Assembly: GCA_017470115.1 (NCBI GenBank)
Contig: JAFUEZ010000013.1
Span: 1-37,981 of the forward strand
DNA length: 37,981 nt
Direction of reading: 5' to 3'
DNA from: Bacilli bacterium
GTDB taxonomy: Bacteria > Bacillota_I > Bacilli_A > RFN20 > CAG-826
This document shows positions 10,914 to 19,443 of the stretch, one piece after another. Below the pieces are notes generated by a model that was not told the origin of the DNA, did not search any database, and saw nothing but the letters and a program-made list of their open reading frames with translations. Position 1 is the stretch's first letter, and each line of letters starts with the position of its first letter. The position numbers were made by a program, and so were the translations under genes.

Positions 10914-10943
10914 AAAAAAGGACTGACACTATGGTATCAATCC
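10914..10943 (-). terminator. Dispersed hairpin repeat acting as terminator of the flavodoxin gene
   Basis: On the minus strand GGATTGATAC pairs with GTGTCAGTCC (10 bp, two G-U) around a CATA loop, followed by TTTTTT. It is one of six similar copies. The bases after it (10959-10981) partly match the tail of the copy at 14.7 kb. Confidence 0.85.
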
Positions 10944-11027
10944 TACTCAATTTAAAATAACCAAAATGTATAGAAACAATACAATGCAGCAGTTTTAAAT
11001 CCACGCAGCACTGTTTTAAATCAATCA

Positions 11028-11540
11028 TTATAATTGCTCATCAATCCATCTTTGTAATAATGGTTTAGAAGAGTTAACGTTTGATCCAACAATTGCTAAG
11101 CCAGTTTTAATATTAGCTTTTAGAGCATATTTTTTAATATCTCTCACTATTGAAGCTAATCCACTACCTTCATGAGTGGAAAATGGCATGATTATTTTAT
11201 CTTTAAAATCTAATTTAGATAATTGAGTAAACATTGGTTGAGGTAATGTTCCCCAATATATTGGACCACCAATAAATATCACATCATAATCATCGATATT
11301 AGATAACTCTTTGACTAATTCTGGAAGTTTGTTTCTTTTTTGTTCGTCTTGAGCTTCTTTAATACAGGTCATGTAGTCTTTTGAATAAGGAACTTTTCTT
11401 TCTACTTTAAATAAATCCGCTCCAATTATATCTTGGATATAATCAGCAACTACCTCAGTGTTGCCTTTATCAATATATCTCATTGAACCACCGAAATAAT
11501 TTTCATCGGCTCTAGAAAAATAAATAACTAATGCTTTCAT
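11028..11540 (-). CDS. Flavodoxin-family protein
   Basis: From the ATG at 11540 the protein has 170 residues of the flavodoxin_4 type. ALVIYFSRADENYFGG is the phosphate-binding loop region and IGGPIYWGTLP carries the flavin-stacking aromatic. The family carries FMN and acts in electron transfer or quinone/nitro reduction in the cytoplasm. GGAG precedes this ATG by six bases, favouring it over the ATG two codons earlier. The gene is bounded by hairpin repeats on both sides (10914 and 11651), so it forms a one-gene unit. It is related in fold to the flavodoxin half of the fusion lipoprotein at 13.3-14.2 kb. Confidence 0.85.
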   Translation of the reverse strand: MKALVIYFSRADENYFGGSMRYIDKGNTEVVADYIQDIIGADLFKVERKVPYSKDYMTCIKEAQDEQKRNKLPELVKELSNIDDYDVIFIGGPIYWGTLPQPMFTQLSKLDFKDKIIMPFSTHEGSGLASIVRDIKKYALKANIKTGLAIVGSNVNSSKPLLQRWIDEQL

Positions 11541-11650
11541 ATACATCTCCTTTTTTGAGCATCAAAATCAATTGTGGATTCTAAAAACCATAGATGACAT
11601 CATTGATTTAACAGTCGAGACTATTAAAAACGATATAAATAGCTAAGAGA

Positions 11651-11675
11651 AAAGACTGACACATCGAATCAATCC
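11651..11675 (-). terminator. Dispersed hairpin repeat acting as terminator of the redox operon
   Basis: On the minus strand AGGATTGA pairs with TCAGTCTT (with G-U pairs), followed by a T-rich stretch. It lies downstream of the alpha/beta hydrolase stop and belongs to the six-copy repeat family. Confidence 0.7.
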
Positions 11676-11757
11676 TATTTAATTTAAATTTAGCCTGGAT
11701 TTTCAATAATCATACAAATAGAACAAACTAATAACCTTTTGAACGCATAATCTATTT

Positions 11758-12723
11758 TTAGATATTCTTTTTGATAAATTCTTCGATCTTATCAAAAGGA
11801 ATTTTGTCGTGATTTGATCCACCATCATATAAGTCACAGTGTGTAGCGTCTTTAACTAATAAAAATTCTTTATTATCACCTTTTAATAACTTAAACGCAT
11901 CTTGACCGAAATATAGTGAATGGGCTTTTTCACCATGAACAATTAAAACAGCATTTCTTATTTCAGAAGCATAGGTAAATAATCTTGTATTCAATAAAGA
12001 TGTGCCTGCAGTAACATTCCATCCACCATTACTATTTAAACTACGTGAATGGTAACCACGTGGTGTTTTGTAGTAGTCGTAATATTGTTTTACAAACCAT
12101 GGAAAATCAGTTGGATCATCAACCACTCCTCCACCTAATTTATAATTACCATTTTTAAAGTCTATTGTTCTTTGATTATTAATTGCTACTCTAGCTTGAT
12201 ATCTACTTTCTTCGTTATCTCCTTGATCAAAATAGCCATTACCAGTGACTCTAGACATATCGTACATAGTGATAGCAACTGTGGCTTTGATTCTTGTATC
12301 AATACAAGCTGTTTGAATAGCCATTCCACCCCATCCACAAATACCGATGATAGAGATTTTATCGTGGTCAACATTATCTAAATTAGATAAATAATCTACT
12401 GCTGCTTGGAAATCTTCAACATTAATATCTGGTGAATTCATATATCGAGGTTCGCCACCGCTTTCTCCTGTAAAAGAAGGATCAAAAGCAATAGTTAAGA
12501 ATCCTCTTTTAGCCATTTCTTGAGCGTATAATCCACTTGATTGTTCCTTAACAGCACCAAAAGGACCAGAAACAGCGATTGCAGGAAAACTCTTTCCTAT
12601 TTTTGGCCAATACATATCCGCAGCAAGTTCGATGCCGAAATGATTTTTAAAGGTAACTTTTTGATGATTGATTGATTCGTCTTTTGGGAAAACTTTATCC
12701 CATTCATTAACTAATTTAAGCAT
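11758..12723 (-). CDS. Alpha/beta hydrolase, dienelactone-hydrolase/YcjY-like
   Basis: A 321-residue cytoplasmic alpha/beta hydrolase. GICGWGGMA sits at the nucleophile elbow and has Cys where Ser is usual, as in dienelactone hydrolases and the YcjY group. VHGEKAH (about 270) and DATHCDLYD (about 300) are in place for the acid and the catalytic His. AFDPSFTGESGG resembles the family's oxyanion region. The substrate is unknown. The start codon overlaps the stop of the FMN reductase gene (shared base 12723), so the two are translationally coupled. Linkage to MerR, flavodoxin and FMN reductase genes suggests a detoxification or quinone/carbonyl stress role (inference). Confidence 0.85.
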   Translation of the reverse strand: MLKLVNEWDKVFPKDESINHQKVTFKNHFGIELAADMYWPKIGKSFPAIAVSGPFGAVKEQSSGLYAQEMAKRGFLTIAFDPSFTGESGGEPRYMNSPDINVEDFQAAVDYLSNLDNVDHDKISIIGICGWGGMAIQTACIDTRIKATVAITMYDMSRVTGNGYFDQGDNEESRYQARVAINNQRTIDFKNGNYKLGGGVVDDPTDFPWFVKQYYDYYKTPRGYHSRSLNSNGGWNVTAGTSLLNTRLFTYASEIRNAVLIVHGEKAHSLYFGQDAFKLLKGDNKEFLLVKDATHCDLYDGGSNHDKIPFDKIEEFIKKNI

Positions 12724-13259
12724 TATATATTCCTCCCCATTTCATAAGCTTGTTTTAATTTTTCACTATTTTTGATTTCATTAGGCCCATTCATTCCTCC
12801 AACAAACAGTGCCTTTTTAAGTTCAACACCATCAAAGCAATCAATCCAACCCTGTAAACCATTAATAGCTTTTTCAGGAACATATTGCTCTTCTTCAGCA
12901 GCGACAGTTAAAAAATAGACTTCTTTGAATTTATAATCTCTAGAATATAAAGAATTACATCTATCAATTAAGGTTTTCATTTGACCAGACAGTTCATAAT
13001 AATAGATTGGTGAGACCCACACTATAACATCGCTTTCACACATCTTATCTGCAATAATGATGGCGTCATCATTTATAACGCATTTATGAGTTTTTTGACA
13101 TGCTAAGCAGCCACGACAGAAAGCAACACTTTTATCTTTCAAAGATACAAATTCAACGACATTTCCAGCTTCTTTTGCTCCTTTTTCAAATTCATGCGCT
13201 AATAATTCGGAATTGCTTCCGTTTCTAACGCTTGTTGAAATAATTAATACTTTTTTCAT
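12723..13259 (-). CDS. NADPH-dependent FMN reductase / iron-sulfur flavoprotein-like
   Basis: The protein has 178 residues with a flavodoxin-like fold: VLIISTSVRNGSNSELLA is the flavin phosphate loop and VWVSPIYYYELSGQMK follows the FMN-stacking strand. CRGCLACQKTHKC (C-x2-C-x2-C-x5-C) matches the cluster or disulfide motif of iron-sulfur flavoproteins. It probably passes electrons from NAD(P)H to flavin and small acceptors. It is the third gene of the MerR operon, six bases after the fusion lipoprotein gene. A paralogue with the same Cys spacing lies at 35.3-36.0 kb. Confidence 0.88.
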   Translation of the reverse strand: MKKVLIISTSVRNGSNSELLAHEFEKGAKEAGNVVEFVSLKDKSVAFCRGCLACQKTHKCVINDDAIIIADKMCESDVIVWVSPIYYYELSGQMKTLIDRCNSLYSRDYKFKEVYFLTVAAEEEQYVPEKAINGLQGWIDCFDGVELKKALFVGGMNGPNEIKNSEKLKQAYEMGRNI

Positions 13260-13265
13260 AATTGA

Positions 13266-14201
13266 TTATCCTTTTATAACAAATGTAACCGATGATTTAT
13301 TTAATAGATTATTTAATCCACTATTATCTAAATTAATGTGCCCAAGCCTCGTATATGACCAGGAACTATTGTGATAAAAAACAGAGATGGCATTACCGTT
13401 ATATAAAACGATATCTCCTGGCACGACATCAATTTGTGAATCGTTTCTAACAATTGATTGACCAATGGAACCTGTTTGTTCAAAGCCACCATATTCGTGC
13501 ATTTCAATAGTTAAAGGCAATAATTTCTTTAAGGCTTTAACTGACTCGTTGTTCTCCCAAGTGACATTTAGTTCTTGATTATCTATTAATAATTTCATAC
13601 TTTCTTCCTTTTTGATATATGTATCTAGCCAATTTCCAATTTCTTCTTTTGTAGTATTCCCTGCAAATCGTTTTCCATCTAACCAATTGGCGTTAGGAGC
13701 GCTCTTTGCTAAGTTAGTGGCACTGCTACCAATAGGTGAACTACCTGAAGTGCAAAACGGAATAATCGTTTTATTTGATAAATCATAAGATTCTATGAAT
13801 GTATATAAGATTTTAGGCGCTTGCCCCCACCAGATTGGATAACCTAAGATAATTGTGTTGTATTGCGAAATATCACTGATGGTATATTTGATTTCTGGTC
13901 TAGCCTTATCATCGTTTTGTTCCTTGTTAGCGCGACAATCGGAATTGTAATCAATATCCGCGGAAGTATATTTCACATTTGGAACGATTTCGAAAATGTC
14001 GCTTTGTAAGTGTTCTTGAGCATATGTCGCCAGTTTTTTAGTGTTATTTGTAACAGAAAAATAGGCCACCAAGACATCATTATCGCCCGGTTTTATTGTT
14101 TGACTGCTATTGTTGCTAGCGTTATCGCTACTCTGACCATCATTTGTAGCGCAACTAGTGAGAATAAGCATTGGTAGAATAAAACTTAATAATCTCTTCA
14201 T
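13266..14201 (-). CDS. Flavodoxin fused to a cyclophilin-like domain, lipoprotein
   Basis: From the ATG at 14201 the protein has 311 residues. A lipoprotein signal peptide ends in LTSC (about residue 17). A Ser/Asn linker leads to a flavodoxin domain (about 35-195; VAYFSVTNNTKKLA and ILGYPIWWGQAP). The C-terminal ~110 residues (from KLLIDNQELNVTW) match the cyclophilin-like domain seen in small beta-barrel proteins (GGFEQTGSIGQSI, VPGDIVLYNGNAISVFY). A flavodoxin outside the membrane implies electron delivery to surface-exposed substrates; this is inference. GGATG precedes the start, and a longer reading frame upstream lacks such a site. The second gene of the MerR operon. Confidence 0.85.
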   Translation of the reverse strand: MKRLLSFILPMLILTSCATNDGQSSDNASNNSSQTIKPGDNDVLVAYFSVTNNTKKLATYAQEHLQSDIFEIVPNVKYTSADIDYNSDCRANKEQNDDKARPEIKYTISDISQYNTIILGYPIWWGQAPKILYTFIESYDLSNKTIIPFCTSGSSPIGSSATNLAKSAPNANWLDGKRFAGNTTKEEIGNWLDTYIKKEESMKLLIDNQELNVTWENNESVKALKKLLPLTIEMHEYGGFEQTGSIGQSIVRNDSQIDVVPGDIVLYNGNAISVFYHNSSWSYTRLGHINLDNSGLNNLLNKSSVTFVIKG

Positions 14202-14211
14202 TTTTACATCC

Positions 14212-14643
14212 TTATTTATTTGGTAATTCATCAACATCTAAAGTGGCTTCTGGATTTGGCCAATCTTTCACTGCTTCTTCTGTCCCAGCTTCTAAAGCCT
14301 TTTCATAGTAAGCTTTTTTAAAATCAATTTGTTTTTTGTAATATTTTAGTTCTTTTATTTGTCTTTCTATGTTTTCTTCTTGTTCTAAAATGAGCTGATA
14401 TCTTTCTTTTAATGTCTCATCGCCCTTTAAAGCTAAATCAACATATTCTTTGATCTTTCTAATTGGCATATTTAAATTCTTTAGACAATTAAGCATTCTT
14501 AGCCATGGGAAATCTTTATCTTCAAATACACGAATACCATTTACTCTTTTTACTAAAGGAAATAATCCTTCTTTATCATAGTATCTAATCGTATATGTTG
14601 AGACATTGAGCATCTTAGCTACTTCTGATATTGAATAACTCAT
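14212..14643 (-). CDS. MerR-family transcriptional regulator
   Basis: The 143-residue protein opens with a MerR winged helix-turn-helix (SYSISEVAKMLNVSTYTIRYYDKEGL), has the wing region NGIRVFEDKDFPWLRML, and ends with a long dimerisation helix (about 75-125). No C-terminal Cys pair is present, so a metal sensor is unlikely; it fits the small-molecule or aldehyde/quinone-responsive branch. The ATG at 14643 follows GAGGTGA; a GTG three codons earlier overlaps that site and is rejected. It heads the redox operon and probably activates its own promoter (14664-14694). Confidence 0.92.
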   Translation of the reverse strand: MSYSISEVAKMLNVSTYTIRYYDKEGLFPLVKRVNGIRVFEDKDFPWLRMLNCLKNLNMPIRKIKEYVDLALKGDETLKERYQLILEQEENIERQIKELKYYKKQIDFKKAYYEKALEAGTEEAVKDWPNPEATLDVDELPNK

Positions 14644-14663
14644 TTTTATCACCTCACATTTAT

Positions 14664-14694
14664 ATATTAAAAGTTAGAGTTAACTCTAAGTCAA
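14664..14694 (-). promoter_or_regulatory. MerR-type promoter with 19-bp spacer and operator
   Basis: On the minus strand TTGACT (14689-14694) and TAATAT (14664-14669) are 19 bases apart. The spacer holds the perfect palindrome TTAGAGTTAACTCTAA (14674-14689). An overlong spacer with a central palindrome is the hallmark of MerR-activated promoters. Confidence 0.88.
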
Positions 14695-14704
14695 GCTCAA
14701 AATA

Positions 14705-14732
14705 AAAAGGACTGACACTTTCGAATCAATCC
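14705..14732 (-). terminator. Dispersed hairpin repeat upstream of the MerR promoter
   Basis: On the minus strand GGATTGAT pairs with GTCAGTCC, followed by TTTTTATTT. No minus-strand gene lies ahead of it (the neighbour to the right is on the + strand). It therefore either insulates the MerR promoter or is a leftover of an insertion. The bases to its right (CTAAGTTGG) match the copies at 16.5 and 18.3 kb. Confidence 0.7.
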
Positions 14733-14809
14733 TATTTAACTAAGTTGGCCAAAATGGACAGAAATGATAAGACTCTACGTTTATTTCTATCACGCTACAT
14801 AATGTATCA

Positions 14810-14838
14810 TTTAATTAGTACCATTAATGTTATATAAT
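14810..14838 (+). promoter_or_regulatory. Promoter of the structured leader and nuclease operon
   Basis: TTTAAT (14810-14815) and TATAAT (14833-14838) are separated by 17 bases on the + strand. Transcription would start near 14845, just before the structured segment. Confidence 0.6.
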
Positions 14839-14844
14839 AAATAT

Positions 14845-15218
14845 ACATTTATTAGCAGACTATCGGCGCTATGAACTAGCTGTAGCAAAGTCGACCATAC
14901 GCAGGTAAACGATAGGACACCCTAATAAAGACTGTAAGATTGGACGTGTTAGGATCTTACATTGTGGAAAGCATCGCCCAGAAGGTAAAGGCGGTACATA
15001 AATAAATGGCGACCATTAGGACACGGTTTATGTAGCAATATTACCCACGCTCCACACAAATAGTTACATTTGAACCAGAGGCCATCCAAAAGAGGACGAA
15101 ACACCAGTAACTATGGTTGATAGGAATATCGGCAGTTAGTTACAGAAGGCGTTTTGGTTTGGATGGTTTTATTTTCCTTCTAAAACACCTAATCGATAAA
15201 AATATAGGAGGAAATAAA
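14845..15218 (+). ncRNA. Highly structured, pseudoknotted leader RNA of unknown class
   Basis: About 375 bases with clearly higher GC than the surroundings precede the nuclease start. Visible helices are: CTATCG/CGATAG (14860-14865/14910-14915); an H-type pseudoknot made of CCTAATA/TGTTAGG (14921-14927/14947-14953) and TGTAAGAT/ATCTTACA (14933-14940/14954-14961); TCGCC/GGCGG (14974-14978/14990-14994); TACATAAA/TTTATGTA (14995-15002/15027-15034) enclosing AATGG-CGA-CCATT; ATAGTTAC/GTAACTAT (15060-15067/15107-15114); CCATCCAAA/TTTGGATGG (15082-15090/15158-15166), which crosses the previous helix; and a hairpin at 15116-15133 with a GGAA tetraloop. Distal bases TTTCCTTC (15173-15180) can pair with the ribosome binding site (15207-15214). 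It may be a riboswitch-like leader or an RNA that works with the encoded protein. It does not match group I intron, tmRNA or RNase P signatures I know. Confidence 0.65.
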
Positions 15219-16229
15219 ATGCTAATCGACACAAAATTTCAAAATTGGGTTGAAAGCCTTTCCCAAAATTACAAAAAGGCTCAAATTAAAGCTGCTATCC
15301 ACGTTAACAGTGAACTTATCAAATTCTATTACGAATTGGGTGAGGAAATAGCTAAAACATCTTTTAAGGCAAGTTATGGGAATAAGTTCTACGATTTGTT
15401 GAGTGCAGAACTAAAAAAAGCCATTCCTAACGCCAAAGGACTAAACCATCAGAATCTAAGATACGCCGAGAAATTTTATACTATGTATAAAAAGATTTTC
15501 CCACAAGTTGTGGGAGAATTGGTGTTGGTGCCTTGGGGCCACCACAGAATTATCATTGACAAATGTAAAACGATTGAAAAATGTTTGTTCTATATCAAAA
15601 CAACAGTTAAAAACAATTTGTCGAGGTATGATTTGGAAAGTCGCATTTTGGCAAATGTATATGAAAGAAGCCAAAACACGATAAACAATTTTACAAAACA
15701 ATTGTCTTCAATTGATGAGGGCATAGCAAATCAAATAATGAAAGATCCTTACGAATTTGATTTTCTAACAATTAGGGAAAACTATAATGAAAAAGAATTA
15801 AAAGACGAATTAACCAAGCATATAGAGTCATTTCTTTTGGAACTCGGAAACGGATTTGCATATGTGGGAAAAGAAGTTCGCCTAATACTAGGTTATACGG
15901 AAATGTACTGCGATTTGTTATTTTATAGCATTAAAGCCCATTGCTATGTGGTAATAGAAATAAAGACAGGTGAATTTAAACCAGAACATATGGGTCAATT
16001 GATTGGGTACACTGCTGCCATTGATGCAACATTAAAAGGTGAATACGATAACAAAACTATCGGAATATTGGTTTGTAGAAACAAAGACAATACCTTGGCT
16101 CAACACATAATAAATGGAACAAATCTACCTGTTGGCATTTCTGAATACCAATTATCGAATTTAATACCAGATAAATATAAATCTTCTTTGCCAACAATTG
16201 AGGATTTAGAAAAAGGCGAGGATAAATAA
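15219..16229 (+). CDS. DUF1016 / YhcG-family PDDEXK nuclease
   Basis: The 336-residue protein matches the YhcG (DUF1016) family. An N-terminal helical winged domain (about 5-160; NWVESLSQNYKKAQIKAA, LNHQNLRYAEKFYTMY, VPWGHHRIIIDKC) is followed by a PDDEXK nuclease domain (about 175-320). LLFYSIKAHCYVVIEIKTG shows the D-x(n)-E-I-K core, where Asp precedes LLFYS and EIK carries Glu and Lys, and MGQLIGYTAAI carries the conserved Gln-x3-Tyr helix. Family members often sit beside restriction-modification or other defence genes; here only a small partner is present. The start was chosen for TAGGAGGAAA eight bases ahead; the upstream open extension overlaps the structured leader. Flanking hairpin repeats mark it as part of an accessory block. 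Confidence 0.9.
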   Translation: MLIDTKFQNWVESLSQNYKKAQIKAAIHVNSELIKFYYELGEEIAKTSFKASYGNKFYDLLSAELKKAIPNAKGLNHQNLRYAEKFYTMYKKIFPQVVGELVLVPWGHHRIIIDKCKTIEKCLFYIKTTVKNNLSRYDLESRILANVYERSQNTINNFTKQLSSIDEGIANQIMKDPYEFDFLTIRENYNEKELKDELTKHIESFLLELGNGFAYVGKEVRLILGYTEMYCDLLFYSIKAHCYVVIEIKTGEFKPEHMGQLIGYTAAIDATLKGEYDNKTIGILVCRNKDNTLAQHIINGTNLPVGISEYQLSNLIPDKYKSSLPTIEDLEKGEDK

Positions 16230-16230
16230 A

Positions 16231-16473
16231 ATGAAAAAGTTTGTTTTAAAATGGGGCAGAGGAAGTGTTTGCGGAATACAAATAGTGTACAAGACAGCAA
16301 TCGTTGAGGAAGAAAACATCGATAATATAAATCCATTAGAAATATTGCCCGATGCAATAAAAAGAAAAGTTCCTTACGTTAGAATAATTCATACTTCTGA
16401 AGCAAAAAGAAATTATGACTATGGTAGCTGGGTGGATTTTATCGAAGCGGAAGAAATAAAACAAAAGGACTGA
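16231..16473 (+). CDS. Small hypothetical partner of the YhcG nuclease
   Basis: An 80-residue protein starting one base after the nuclease stop, with GGCGAGGA as ribosome site, so it is in the same operon. It begins MKKFVLKWGRGSVCGIQ and is moderately charged with a mixed alpha/beta pattern (VPYVRIIHTSEAKRNYDYG). I recognise no family and see no signal peptide or membrane helix. Its stop codon (TGA 16471-16473) and last two residues lie in the hairpin repeat, so the natural C terminus may have been changed by the insertion that created this junction. It could be an accessory, inhibitor or unrelated cargo protein. Confidence 0.6.
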   Translation: MKKFVLKWGRGSVCGIQIVYKTAIVEEENIDNINPLEILPDAIKRKVPYVRIIHTSEAKRNYDYGSWVDFIEAEEIKQKD

Positions 16474-16489
16474 CACATTGTATCAATCC
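16463..16489 (-). terminator. Dispersed hairpin repeat acting as terminator of the 17.3-kb lipoprotein
   Basis: On the minus strand GGATTGATAC pairs fully with GTGTCAGTCC around AAT (two G-U), followed by TTTTGTTTT. The 44-base segment around it is nearly identical to the one next to tRNA-Glu (18282-18325). On the + strand the same repeat supplies the stop of the 80-residue gene. Confidence 0.88.
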
Positions 16490-16534
16490 AATTTAACTAA
16501 GTTGGTAGATAACGAAATTAGTTGTGGGTTTTAA

Positions 16535-17272
16535 CTAAATATTTATATGATTTAAATCTGTATCATAATATTCGCCACCTATACAATATACAACCGAGTC
16601 TTCTTTAATAACATCATCAACAAAAACAAATGTAAAATTGTTGTAATCAATTTTAAACTCTGTTTCTTCTCCTCCATTTGCTTTGCGTTTTCTTAAAAAC
16701 ATCATTTCAACACATAAATCATCCTTAAGATCTTCTAAATGAAAATCATAATTTATTGAATCGCTTCCTTCTTCAATTGAATGATTTAATTTATAGTTTT
16801 CTTCTTCTCCAATTTCATCGACTTGAGCGATATATTTTTCTTGTTTTACATCTTTAATTTCTTGATAAAGTAATGAATTTTTCTTAAAGAATTCTATAGC
16901 TTCATTATAAGCATTTTCCGCAGATTCTAATGTATTTGTTTGCCAAATATTAATAGCACATCCTGGTTTTCGCTCTTTATTAGAAACATAAATTGAAAAG
17001 AAGGCGCTTGTGCAAATATCGTACGATTTTAAAATTGACTCGTTAGAGTTTCCTTCTACACTCTTTAATCTATAATTGATAAATGGATAAATATTGCTTT
17101 TAATAGATTTTGTATCTCTATCAAATTTCAATTCAACATAAAAATTAATAGTTGATAACTGAGGTTCACAATTGTTTAAGGAATTCAATTTAATTGTATT
17201 ACTCTCGTTTACGCAACTAATTAACAAACCACATAACGAAAAAATAGATGATCTTTTAATAAAAGTTTTCAT
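16535..17272 (-). CDS. Hypothetical lipoprotein
   Basis: A 245-residue protein with a basic N terminus, a hydrophobic core and a lipobox LISC (Cys20). The mature part is acidic, about 225 residues long, with few repeats and one internal Cys in each half (YDICTSAFFSIYVS, DDLCVEMMFLRKR). I do not recognise the family. GGAGGAAGAG precedes the start and the hairpin repeat at 16463 ends it. It lies in the accessory block between the nuclease unit and the acetyltransferase, and no functional link is evident. Confidence 0.65.
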   Translation of the reverse strand: MKTFIKRSSIFSLCGLLISCVNESNTIKLNSLNNCEPQLSTINFYVELKFDRDTKSIKSNIYPFINYRLKSVEGNSNESILKSYDICTSAFFSIYVSNKERKPGCAINIWQTNTLESAENAYNEAIEFFKKNSLLYQEIKDVKQEKYIAQVDEIGEEENYKLNHSIEEGSDSINYDFHLEDLKDDLCVEMMFLRKRKANGGEETEFKIDYNNFTFVFVDDVIKEDSVVYCIGGEYYDTDLNHINI

Positions 17273-17614
17273 AAACTCTTCCTCCGCAATATAAACATAA
17301 TAGAAGTAACTTTCTAAATCATTATATCAAGAATTTATAAATCAAAAATAAAAAAGATAATACTAAGTATTACCCGATAAATGCTTTTTGGTGAAGCGTT
17401 AGGGGTAGCATACGCTACTTTTTTGTTGTAATTCGAGGGTCTTACGTGGCCAACCCCACAATTCCCACTTAATTTCCAAACAAAAAGACAAAAGAAAAAC
17501 TCGCTTTTTCTTATCTTTTGCTCAAAGAGCAACGATTTAGGAGCGAGTATCTTACAGTGTGGCCTAAGTGGACAGAAATGATACAGCGGAACAAAACCAC
17601 CCACCACTGGAACA
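17273..17614. other. Gene-poor stretch with hairpins, probable decayed mobile or repeat sequence
   Basis: This stretch has a different base composition from its neighbours and several inverted repeats. GTAGC-ATAC-GCTAC followed by T6 is at 17405-17424 (+ strand). AGAAAAA-CTCGC-TTTTTCT is near 17490-17512. Bases 17549-17562 (ATCTTACAGTGTGG) match 13 of 14 in the structured leader at 14954-14967, and 17561-17583 match 21 of 23 at 14747-14769. A 90-codon minus-strand frame exists (17335-17607) but lacks a ribosome site and has unlikely composition, so I do not call it a gene. It also contains the upstream region of the lipoprotein gene (TATAAT-like boxes near 17325). Confidence 0.5.
17405..17424 (+). 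terminator. Small terminator-like hairpin
   Basis: GTAGC-ATAC-GCTAC is followed directly by TTTTTT on the + strand. No + strand gene precedes it, so it may be a relic or belong to an unseen RNA. Confidence 0.5.
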
Positions 17615-18259
17615 CTACTTTTTAAGCAAAGCTTTTAATTCTTTTTTACTTTGTTGCAAATCACATGTAAGTATAGGGATCAGTTTTTTAATCTCTTCGA
17701 TATCTTTATCCCACCACTTGAGTTCTAAAAGAAGATCAATTGTATCTTTATCAAATCTATATTTCTTAATAACAGCGGGATTACCTACGACAACCGCATA
17801 AGGAGGAACATCTTTTGCCACTACAGCATTAGCGCCAATAATCGCACCGTCACCAATATGAACGCCAGGAAGAATGGTTGCGTTTTGACCAATCCAAACA
17901 TCATTACCTACGACTGTATCGCCGCGATTTCCTCGATCTCCAAATGGTCTAGATAAACCTTTAAATTCATCAATGATTTCAAATGGATATGTTGTAAAAC
18001 AATCGAGCATATGATTCGCCCCATTCATGACGAATTCAACACCTCTTGCTATAGCAACAAACTTGCCAATAATCAGTTTGTCACCCATAAAGTCATAATG
18101 ATGAGTGACATGTTTTTCAAACGATTCTGGTCCATCTTCACTATCATCATAATAGGAATAATCACCCGCAATAATGTTTGGTCTAGTGATTACGCTTTTG
18201 ATATAACAAAAAGATTTAAATTGCGCATTTGGGTAAATTGGTTTCATCTCTTTTTCCAT
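17615..18259 (-). CDS. Vat-like xenobiotic acetyltransferase (left-handed beta-helix)
   Basis: From the ATG at 18259 the protein has 214 residues of hexapeptide-repeat acetyltransferase. [38 protein letters not shown] (catalytic-type His after NGAN) and the hexapeptide stretch [20 protein letters not shown] followed by [14 protein letters not shown] match the Vat/CatB group. Family members acetylate streptogramin A or chloramphenicol using acetyl-CoA; whether this one gives resistance is not established. No good ribosome site is seen; ATGs at 18259 and 18247 are both possible, and the ATG at 18295 lies inside the terminator hairpin and is rejected. It sits about 23 bases after the terminator of the tRNA operon with little room for a promoter, so tRNA read-through may drive it. 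Confidence 0.82.
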
Positions 18260-18281
18260 ATAAATATGATAACAAAAAAAT

Positions 18282-18308
18282 AAAAGGACTGACACATTGT
18301 ATCAATCC
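18282..18308 (-). terminator. Dispersed hairpin repeat, terminator of the tRNA operon
   Basis: On the minus strand GGATTGATAC pairs with GTGTCAGTCC around an AAT loop, followed by TTTTATTTTTTT. It follows the encoded CCA of tRNA-Glu by 14 bases. It is probably the ancestral copy of the six-member repeat, since a tRNA operon needs a terminator here. Confidence 0.88.
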
Positions 18309-19098: not shown

Positions 19099-19443
19099 CT
19101 ATTTATATAAATTGATAACCGCATATCGCTTAATTCTTAGTTCTAAAGGCTCTCGTTCGTACGATACAAATTTATACTCTTTAATCAAGTAATAACCCAG
19201 GGTTGAACCTTCTTCATAACTATAATTAAGTCCTACTGGCTCAATTTCCGCATTTATGCTATCCTTCACGTATTTCTTTACATCGTCATCAATAATCCCA
19301 CTCTTAGAAATCTTAAAGCTGACGCTTGTTGCTAATGAATCCATACAACTATAAGTAAGTTGAATCGAAACAAAATCTACTCCAAAAAGAAATGCGATAT
19401 AGATTAAAATCATGGATAGCATTGTTCCTAATTTAGAAGCCAT
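19099..19443 (-). CDS. Tad-locus membrane-anchored small protein (pseudopilin-like)
   Basis: The 114-residue protein has one N-terminal membrane helix (MLSMILIYIAFLFGVDFVSI) and about 85 mostly hydrophilic residues, with a charged C terminus (LELRIKRYAVINLYK). The layout resembles minor pilins or TadE/TadF-type proteins, but no diagnostic residue is seen. It overlaps the TadC-like gene by 11 bases and precedes the pilin gene, so it belongs to the pilus operon. Confidence 0.65.
   Translation of the reverse strand: MASKLGTMLSMILIYIAFLFGVDFVSIQLTYSCMDSLATSVSFKISKSGIIDDDVKKYVKDSINAEIEPVGLNYSYEEGSTLGYYLIKEYKFVSYEREPLELRIKRYAVINLYK

What the first reader, a model, noticed from the sequence alone, without database searches (positions are those of the whole stretch)
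14845..15218. Large pseudoknotted RNA leading a YhcG-type nuclease operon
The segment is GC-richer than its surroundings, has a plausible + strand promoter (14810-14838) and no reading frame, and folds into at least seven helices of 5-9 bp. One part is a clean H-type pseudoknot: CCTAATA/TGTTAGG interleaved with TGTAAGAT/ATCTTACA, with the two 3' strands directly adjacent at 14953/14954. A second crossing pair is ATAGTTAC/GTAACTAT with CCATCCAAA/TTTGGATGG. I know no described RNA class upstream of DUF1016/YhcG nucleases. It could be a riboswitch, a guide-like or toxin-antitoxin-like RNA, or a regulatory RNA of a defence module.
Basis: partly seen in the sequence, partly recalled or inferred. 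Interest (0 to 1): 0.78.

Follow-up and report, generated by a model that had tools for sequence, protein, structure and literature searches.

The report
RNA switch shared by unrelated toxins
This stretch encodes a roughly 330-base folded RNA, of which only the last third is catalogued (as "COG3943 RNA"); the same RNA sits in front of unrelated toxin-like and candidate anti-phage genes in gut bacteria, and its conserved pairing options suggest it holds them off until some still unknown signal appears.

Summary
The finding is real, but the RNA is not undescribed. Positions 15046-15152 match Rfam RF02941 "COG3943 RNA" (89.5 bits, cut-off 71.8). The element is larger than Rfam's 108 nt. In 92 copies from 64 genomes of the window's own family, a ~330-nt RNA begins just after a promoter-like site and ends shortly before the start codon. 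A long-range helix with compensatory changes joins the uncatalogued 5' half to the Rfam part.

CCTAATA/TGTTAGG occurs in only 16 of 71 copies, and ATAGTTAC/GTAACTAT is not conserved.

The RNA leads unrelated toxin-like genes: YhcG (48), MazF-like (18), RhuM-Fic (16), BrnT (5). Within one genome it can be 98-100% identical before unrelated effectors in unrelated flanks. One strand covaries with both a local partner and a distal partner followed by a U-tract; the Shine-Dalgarno has a complementary strand upstream.

Best reading: a cis-acting RNA switch that attenuates and/or occludes translation of exchangeable toxin/defence genes, many in islets at tRNA 3' ends. The signal is unknown, and no expression data were available. 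A directly binding RNA antitoxin is unlikely.

The parts
14828..14838 (+). promoter-like extended -10 region (TG...TATAAT); transcription start expected near 14845
   Evidence: family consensus TGnTATAAT at this place; 30/72 copies against 4 shuffled; not found by the simple sigma-70 scan; no RNA data
14845..15152 (+). body of the structured RNA (5' domain + core + variable domain + Rfam 3' domain)
   Evidence: 96-100% identical between copies with unrelated flanks; covariation
14860..14865 (+). 5'-domain closing stem, 5' strand (CTATCG); partner 14910-14915 (CGATAG)
   Evidence: read from the alignment (CTATCG/CGATAG, CTATTG/CAATAG, CCACAG/CTGTGG); not counted formally
14933..14961 (+). core hairpin: stem TGTAAGAT 14933-14940 / ATCTTACA 14954-14961, loop with near-invariant GTGTTAG 14946-14952
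   Evidence: 98.6% of cells paired, 8 of 8 pairs with double changes
14963..14967 (+). long-range helix LR1, 5' strand TGTGG (partner 15052-15056 CCACA)
   Evidence: TGTGG/CCACA, TAGGG/CCCTA, TGCGG/CCGCA, TGAGG/CCTCA, TGGGG/CCCCA; 10 co-changes on the tree against 1.3 expected
14966..14980 (+). highly conserved mostly unpaired stretch GGAAAGCATCGCCCA
   Evidence: alignment A2
14981..15045 (+). variable peripheral domain (outer stem GGTAA/TTACC), replaced or very short in some copies
15046..15152 (+). Rfam RF02941 COG3943 RNA match
   Evidence: 89.5 bits, gathering 71.8, E 3.1e-15
15082..15090 (+). shared strand S1 (CCATCCAAA): pairs locally (P2, 15094-15098) or distally (LR2, 15158-15166)
   Evidence: S1 covaries with both partners, z 9.6 and 8.8 against swapped arms; tree-aware co-changes
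15094..15098 (+). local partner of S1 (P2), GGACG; consensus GGATG, one pair broken in this copy
15101..15105 (+). P3 5' strand ACACC; partner 15148-15152 GGCGT (consensus GGTGT, one pair broken here)
15107..15143 (+). P4 stem GTAACTA 15107-15113 / TAGTTAC 15137-15143
   Evidence: 94.9% of cells paired, 7 of 7 pairs with double changes
15158..15166 (+). distal partner of S1 (LR2), TTTGGATGG
   Evidence: 97.8% of cells paired; formed in the predicted ground state of 98.6% of copies
15167..15175 (+). U-tract directly after LR2 (terminator-like)
   Evidence: 80% U over 8 nt in the family against 30% in the leader
15148..15189 (+). alternative hairpin Hdn: GGCGTTTT 15148-15155 / AAAACACC 15182-15189, competes with P3
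   Evidence: own 8.99 bp, swapped 8.36, shuffled 6.22
15173..15182 (+). anti-Shine-Dalgarno strand (TTTCCTTCTA)
15205..15214 (+). Shine-Dalgarno region TAGGAGGAAA, predicted sequestered
15219..16229 (+). effector: DUF1016/YhcG PD-(D/E)XK nuclease, 336 aa; PADLOC phage-defence candidate PDC-S02
   Evidence: Pfam PF06250 E 1.3e-52, PF17761 E 4.4e-31; PADLOC E 3.8e-124
16231..16473 (+). 80-aa partner ORF of unknown family, found after related YhcG genes only
   Evidence: 7 loci; no Pfam, NCBIfam or PADLOC hit; low-confidence model
14705..14748 (.). left att-like direct repeat (copy of tRNA-Glu 3' flank + terminator)
16463..16505 (.). right att-like direct repeat bounding the RNA-YhcG islet

Best explanation
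The element is the 5' leader of a toxin/defence gene and works in cis as a bistable RNA switch. Shown by comparison of copies: one folded RNA of about 330 nt (Rfam's COG3943 RNA is its 3' third) with two sets of mutually exclusive, conserved pairings. S1 pairs either with its local partner (P2) or with a distal strand followed by a U-tract (LR2). The strand GGUGU pairs either upstream (P3) or downstream (Hdn). A further strand is complementary to the Shine-Dalgarno. Inferred: in the default state LR2 plus its U-tract attenuates transcription and the anti-SD strand hides the ribosome-binding site, so the toxin-like effector stays silent. A signal read by the conserved 5' domain and core favours P2 and Hdn, giving read-through and a free ribosome-binding site. 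The same control RNA is combined with unrelated effectors (YhcG nuclease, RhuM-Fic, MazF-like, BrnT), often in small islets at tRNA 3' ends. The signal is unknown; an infection or stress cue is a guess from the nature of the effectors.
For: 92 copies in 64 of 224 genomes of the family. Six helices, 35 pairs: 96.9% of cells paired against 79.7% shuffled, covariation 0.512 against 0.185, 0 of 500 shuffles. LR1 joins 5' half and Rfam half (10 co-changes against 1.3 expected). S1 covaries with local and distal partners, 0 of 2000 permutations each (7 and 6 co-changes against about 0.6). Hdn above swapped and shuffled. U-tract 80% against 30%. SD complement longer than shuffled, z 21, and than swapped, z 5.9. 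Distance from RNA end to start codon about 55-80 nt in most copies whatever the effector. Effectors toxin- or defence-like: PDC-S02 and PDC-S23, BrnT and Fic, MazF fold Z 9.1. RNA 98-100% identical before unrelated effectors and flanks within a genome.
Against: No RNA-seq, probing or reporter data: transcription, termination and switching are inferred. No ligand or partner known. In a nested fold the OFF-like state wins nearly always, so what drives the other state is not shown. Shine-Dalgarno nucleotides are also mostly paired in shuffled leaders (0.80 against 0.99), so occlusion rests on the complementarity test, not on folding. P3 and aSD strands are nearly invariant, so covariation there is weak. 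Tree-aware support for the second S1 position is small (2-3 co-changes). About half of the YhcG and most RhuM genes in the same genomes do without the RNA.
Confidence: 0.6

Rival explanations
1. RNA antitoxin, type III-like: the RNA, released by termination at LR2, binds and neutralises the downstream toxin.
For: RNA upstream of the toxin, terminator-like element between them, one effector class has the MazF/CptN/ToxN fold (MazF Z 9.1, CptN Z 7.3), many units lack a protein antitoxin.
Against: Near-identical RNAs precede unrelated effectors, e.g. 100% over about 330 nt before YhcG and RhuM-Fic in one genome, so direct cognate binding is unlikely; no tandem repeats in the RNA; BrnT units carry BrnA; elaborate 3' switch unexplained.
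Confidence: 0.13
2. Free-standing non-coding RNA (Rfam types RF02941 as sRNA gene) that acts in trans; the effector gene next to it is only a neighbour.
For: U-tract after LR2 could end the RNA; within a genome copies can be nearly identical, as for a partner-binding RNA; one IMG/VR contig end carries the RNA with a different 3' flank and no effector before the contig ends.
Against: All but 3 of 92 copies have a toxin- or defence-like gene behind, mostly at a similar distance; the conserved anti-SD and Hdn strands lie beyond the U-tract and make sense only in a read-through mRNA.
Confidence: 0.15
3. The conserved sequence mainly serves mobility: the folded element is a recombination cassette that swaps effectors at tRNA sites.
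For: 33 of 92 loci lie by tRNA genes, most with the tRNA 3' end facing the unit; in this window tRNA-Glu-derived repeats bracket the unit; the same tRNA locus carries different effectors.
Against: Tests for flanking repeats were at chance level at most other loci; covariation includes G-U pairs and SD pairing, which point to RNA; identity stops at promoter and leader end, not at islet ends.
Confidence: 0.08

Closest known systems
Rfam RF02941 COG3943 RNA
   Same: 3' third (15046-15152) is a clear member; gene association includes COG3943 (RhuM)
   Different: Rfam model has 108 nt and lacks the 5' domain, core hairpin, 5' strand of LR1, the distal partner of S1, Hdn and the anti-SD strand; most copies here lead YhcG, not RhuM
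Riboswitches and other leader RNA switches with terminator or Shine-Dalgarno occlusion
   Same: 5' leader position, large conserved core, mutually exclusive pairings, U-tract, anti-SD strand
   Different: no ligand known; regulates unrelated toxin/defence genes rather than one pathway
Type III toxin-antitoxin systems (ToxIN, CptIN, TenpIN; review PMC5086642)
   Same: RNA upstream of toxin, single promoter, terminator-like element between; one effector class shares the MazF/CptN/ToxN fold
   Different: no repeats; unrelated effectors behind near-identical RNA; window effector is a PD-(D/E)XK nuclease
Type I toxin mRNAs such as tisB (PMC7708055)
   Same: long structured leader of a toxin gene with sequestered ribosome-binding site and a 5' pseudoknot
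   Different: effectors are not small membrane peptides; no antisense RNA promoter above chance; leader conserved across unrelated toxins
PADLOC phage-defence candidates PDC-S02 and PDC-S05/S23
   Same: the effector proteins themselves; PDC-S02 and PDC-S05 are reported as abundant in rumen genomes (PMC13356809)
   Different: I found no account of a leader RNA for them in the papers I could search

Membership tests
Rfam RF02941 (COG3943 RNA) | covariance-model score above the gathering cut-off | tested here: met
   89.5 bits against 71.8, full length 1-108
Rfam RF02941 (COG3943 RNA) | lies upstream of COG3943/RhuM genes (the family's name, not a scoring criterion of Rfam) | tested here: inconclusive
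   not so for the window copy (YhcG), but so for 16 of 92 copies in the family
Riboswitch / cis-acting RNA switch | conserved structured leader at a steady distance before the gene | tested here: met
Riboswitch / cis-acting RNA switch | mutually exclusive structures, each conserved | tested here: met
   S1 with two covarying partners; P3 against Hdn
Riboswitch / cis-acting RNA switch | binds a ligand or factor and changes expression | not testable with these tools
   needs probing and reporters
Type III toxin-antitoxin | antitoxin RNA made of short direct repeats | tested here: not met
   no direct repeats inside the RNA
Type III toxin-antitoxin | RNA is cognate to one endoribonuclease toxin | tested here: not met
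   98-100% identical RNA before unrelated effectors
Type III toxin-antitoxin | ToxN/CptN/TenpN-fold toxin | tested here: not met
   window effector is YhcG; the MazF/CptN-like fold occurs only in another effector class
Type III toxin-antitoxin | terminator between RNA and toxin gene | tested here: inconclusive
   LR2 plus U-tract is terminator-like; termination itself not testable
Type I toxin-antitoxin (tisB-like) | antisense RNA opposite the leader | tested here: inconclusive
   minus-strand promoter-like sites at chance level; no RNA data
YhcG/DUF1016 nuclease (effector) | both Pfam domains above cut-off | tested here: met
   PF06250 178.2 bits, PF17761 108.2 bits

The most novel reading that the evidence does not exclude
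A general-purpose control RNA for defence genes: one RNA sensor, in places homogenised within a genome, is used as an exchangeable control cassette that arms structurally unrelated toxins (PD-(D/E)XK nuclease, Fic, MazF-like, BrnT) upon a common cue such as phage infection. It would be a switch class defined by the kind of genes it arms rather than by a metabolic pathway.
Probability: 0.3. Interest if true: 0.85.

Novelty: new variant of a known kind. Interest (0 to 1): 0.62.

Why it matters
How stand-alone toxins and candidate defence genes are kept silent and then triggered is largely open. A conserved RNA that is the common factor before several unrelated effectors gives a direct handle: one RNA to probe, one set of compensatory mutations to make, and one search for the cue. 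It also corrects the extent of a catalogued RNA family (108 nt against about 330 nt plus a 3' switch) and marks a small MazF-fold protein family without a Pfam entry as a likely toxin.

Tried and rejected
Pairing of the conserved loop GTGTTA with the conserved UAACAC before P3: possible in most copies, but both strands hardly vary, so not testable by covariation. Possible divergent copies before RNA-less YhcG genes: Rfam finds none in 20 such loci. RNA outside the family: none in class and phylum samples, none in phage or plasmid records; of 11 IMG/VR pattern hits one is genuine, at a contig end and probably a host fragment. The genome contigs pattern scan gave many hits outside Bacilli, taken to be chance matches to a loose pattern and not scored one by one. 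Flanking repeats at other tRNA loci: at chance level except in a few. Structure of the 80-aa partner: low confidence, not searched. Original description of RF02941 (Weinberg et al. 2017, named from memory) is not in the held library and the accession is in no held paper, so I could not check what it said on gene context or length.

Full report
What is there. A search of the window against Rfam finds RF02941 "COG3943 RNA" at 15046-15152, + strand, 89.5 bits against a cut-off of 71.8. A second copy lies elsewhere in the same genome, before another YhcG gene. The 5' two thirds, 14845-15045, are not in the Rfam model. The effector behind the RNA, 15219-16229, is a DUF1016/YhcG PD-(D/E)XK nuclease, listed in PADLOC as phage-defence candidate PDC-S02.

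Distribution. Whole-genome searches find 92 copies in 64 of 224 genomes of the window's own family. Samples of 395 genomes of the class and 392 of the phylum gave matches in that family only. Named records with clear matches are uncultured Bacilli from rumen and horse gut, variously labelled Erysipelotrichaceae, Bacillales or Tenericutes. No match in phage or plasmid records. One IMG/VR contig carries the RNA at its very end.

The RNA is larger than Rfam's model. Aligning 71 distinct copies over about 400 nt shows a conserved 5' start after a TGnTATAAT-like site, a core hairpin with the near-invariant loop GTGTTAG, the stretch GGAAAGYATYGCCCA, a variable peripheral domain, and then the Rfam part. 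Six helices counted on this alignment are paired in 96.9% of cells (79.7% when 3' letters are shuffled), with 465 doubly changed cells against 143, and a covariation score of 0.512 against 0.185; sliding the partners destroys the signal. The helix LR1, TGTGG 14963-14967 with CCACA 15052-15056, links the uncatalogued 5' half to the Rfam half. Its variants are TGTGG/CCACA, TAGGG/CCCTA, TGCGG/CCGCA, TGAGG/CCTCA and TGGGG/CCCCA. On a tree built without these columns, both sides change on the same branch 10 times against 1.3 expected.

A switch at the 3' end. The strand S1 (CCATCC or variants) covaries with a local partner (P2) and equally with a distal strand (LR2) about 70-80 nt further on; both pairings exceed all 2000 permutations, and tree-aware counts are 7 and 6 co-changes against about 0.6 for the better position, 2-3 against 0.3-0.5 for the other. 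The two pairings exclude each other. LR2 is directly followed by a stretch that is 80% U against 30% in the leader. The strand GGUGU pairs upstream with ACACC (P3) or downstream in a hairpin Hdn, which exceeds swapped and shuffled controls. A pyrimidine strand before the start codon is complementary to the Shine-Dalgarno over 9.4 nt on average, against 8.5 with swapped and 6.1 with shuffled partners. In a nested fold the state LR2 + P3 + hidden Shine-Dalgarno dominates in nearly all copies; but shuffled leaders also pair these purines often (0.80 against 0.99), so the folding result alone is weak evidence for occlusion.

The window copy. It keeps LR1, LR2, the core hairpin and the anti-SD pairing, but has one broken pair each in P2 (GGACG for GGATG) and P3 (GGCGT for GGTGT). 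Its balance between P2 and LR2 is predicted near even. It may be slightly decayed or tuned differently.

One RNA, unrelated effectors. The first effector behind the RNA is YhcG in 48 copies (some after a small DUF4314 ORF), a small protein with conserved YHFR and HP motifs in 18, RhuM-N/Fic fusion in 16 (PDC-S23), BrnT with BrnA in 5, and single cases of KilA-N and a second small protein with BrnA; three copies have no such gene, two of them at contig ends. The small protein has no Pfam, NCBIfam, PHROGs or PADLOC hit. Its model (mean pLDDT 88.5) resembles MazF-type toxins best (Z 9.1 to MazF-mt1, many MazF entries above 8; CptN 7.3; Foldseek also ranks MazF first but with E-values no better than 0.05). 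Type of effector does not follow type of 5' domain. Most telling, within genome G511 the RNA is 99-100% identical at two loci whose flanks and effectors are unrelated (YhcG and RhuM-Fic), and 96-99% in G500. The conserved block begins at the promoter and fades after the Rfam part. This is not so for every genome: the two copies in the window's own genome differ.

The RNA is not obligatory: 42 of 91 YhcG and 17 of 75 RhuM genes in these genomes carry it, and 20 RNA-less YhcG loci show no trace in Rfam.

Genomic setting. In the window the RNA-YhcG-80aa unit is bracketed by direct repeats that copy the 3' flank and terminator of the neighbouring tRNA-Glu; five copies exist in the genome, all here and all in one orientation. 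In 33 of 92 loci a tRNA gene lies in the fetched stretch, mostly with its 3' end facing the unit, often 32-52 bp from the effector's stop. Repeats as in the window were found at few other loci. The same tRNA-Pro neighbourhood carries YhcG in some genomes and RhuM-Fic in others, and another shared neighbourhood carries YhcG or BrnT-BrnA. In relatives of the genus the tRNA-Glu 3' flank holds other genes. So these are small islets at tRNA ends, a usual place for mobile and defence genes (general knowledge).

How it most likely works. Shown: one large RNA, conserved exclusive pairings, conserved position before unrelated toxin-like genes. Inferred: default OFF by attenuation at LR2 and by hiding the ribosome-binding site; ON through P2 and Hdn after a cue read by the 5' domain and core. 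The cue is unknown. A directly binding antitoxin is disfavoured by near-identical RNAs before unrelated effectors; a trans-acting role cannot be excluded.

Novelty. The RNA family is catalogued; the full-length architecture, the 3' switch and the sharing by unrelated toxin-like genes are, as far as the searchable papers go, not described. The original description of RF02941 could not be read here, so part of this may be in it.

Noticed in passing
window 10916-18308 (+ coordinates 10921, 11654, 14710, 16468, 18287): Five direct repeats derived from the tRNA-Glu 3' flank and terminator, all in one orientation and nowhere else in the genome, divide a stack of islets (flavodoxin; hydrolase/FMN reductase/flavodoxin/MerR; RNA-YhcG; lipoprotein and acetyltransferase). 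Two of the copies are degenerate in the CCA-proximal part.
   Followed up: partly
window 16231-16473: 80-aa ORF behind YhcG, conserved in 7 loci and only with YhcG genes; no known family; may be a partner or immunity protein.
   Followed up: partly
L223, L238, L227 and others (18 loci): Small YHFR/HP protein family with predicted MazF-like fold and no Pfam, NCBIfam, PHROGs or PADLOC model.
   Followed up: yes
L255, L240: A second small family (WHFR...KHPSLIVG) with similar motifs; in L255 it is followed by a BrnA-like antitoxin instead of BrnT-BrnA, as if the toxin had been replaced.
   Followed up: partly
L274, L276, L277, L280: Stretches around YhcG genes without the RNA also hold stable RNA genes: SRP RNA, tmRNA and tRNAs.
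   Followed up: no
L051 10000-10242: RNA at the end of an IMG/VR contig with LR2 and U-tract but another terminator-like hairpin instead of anti-SD and effector; the contig may be a host fragment.
   Followed up: partly
window 19099-19443 and loci L287, L288, L293, L295: A gene at the other side of the tRNA pair in the window lies on the tRNA-Glu 3' side in relatives, suggesting a rearrangement at this tRNA site.
   Followed up: no
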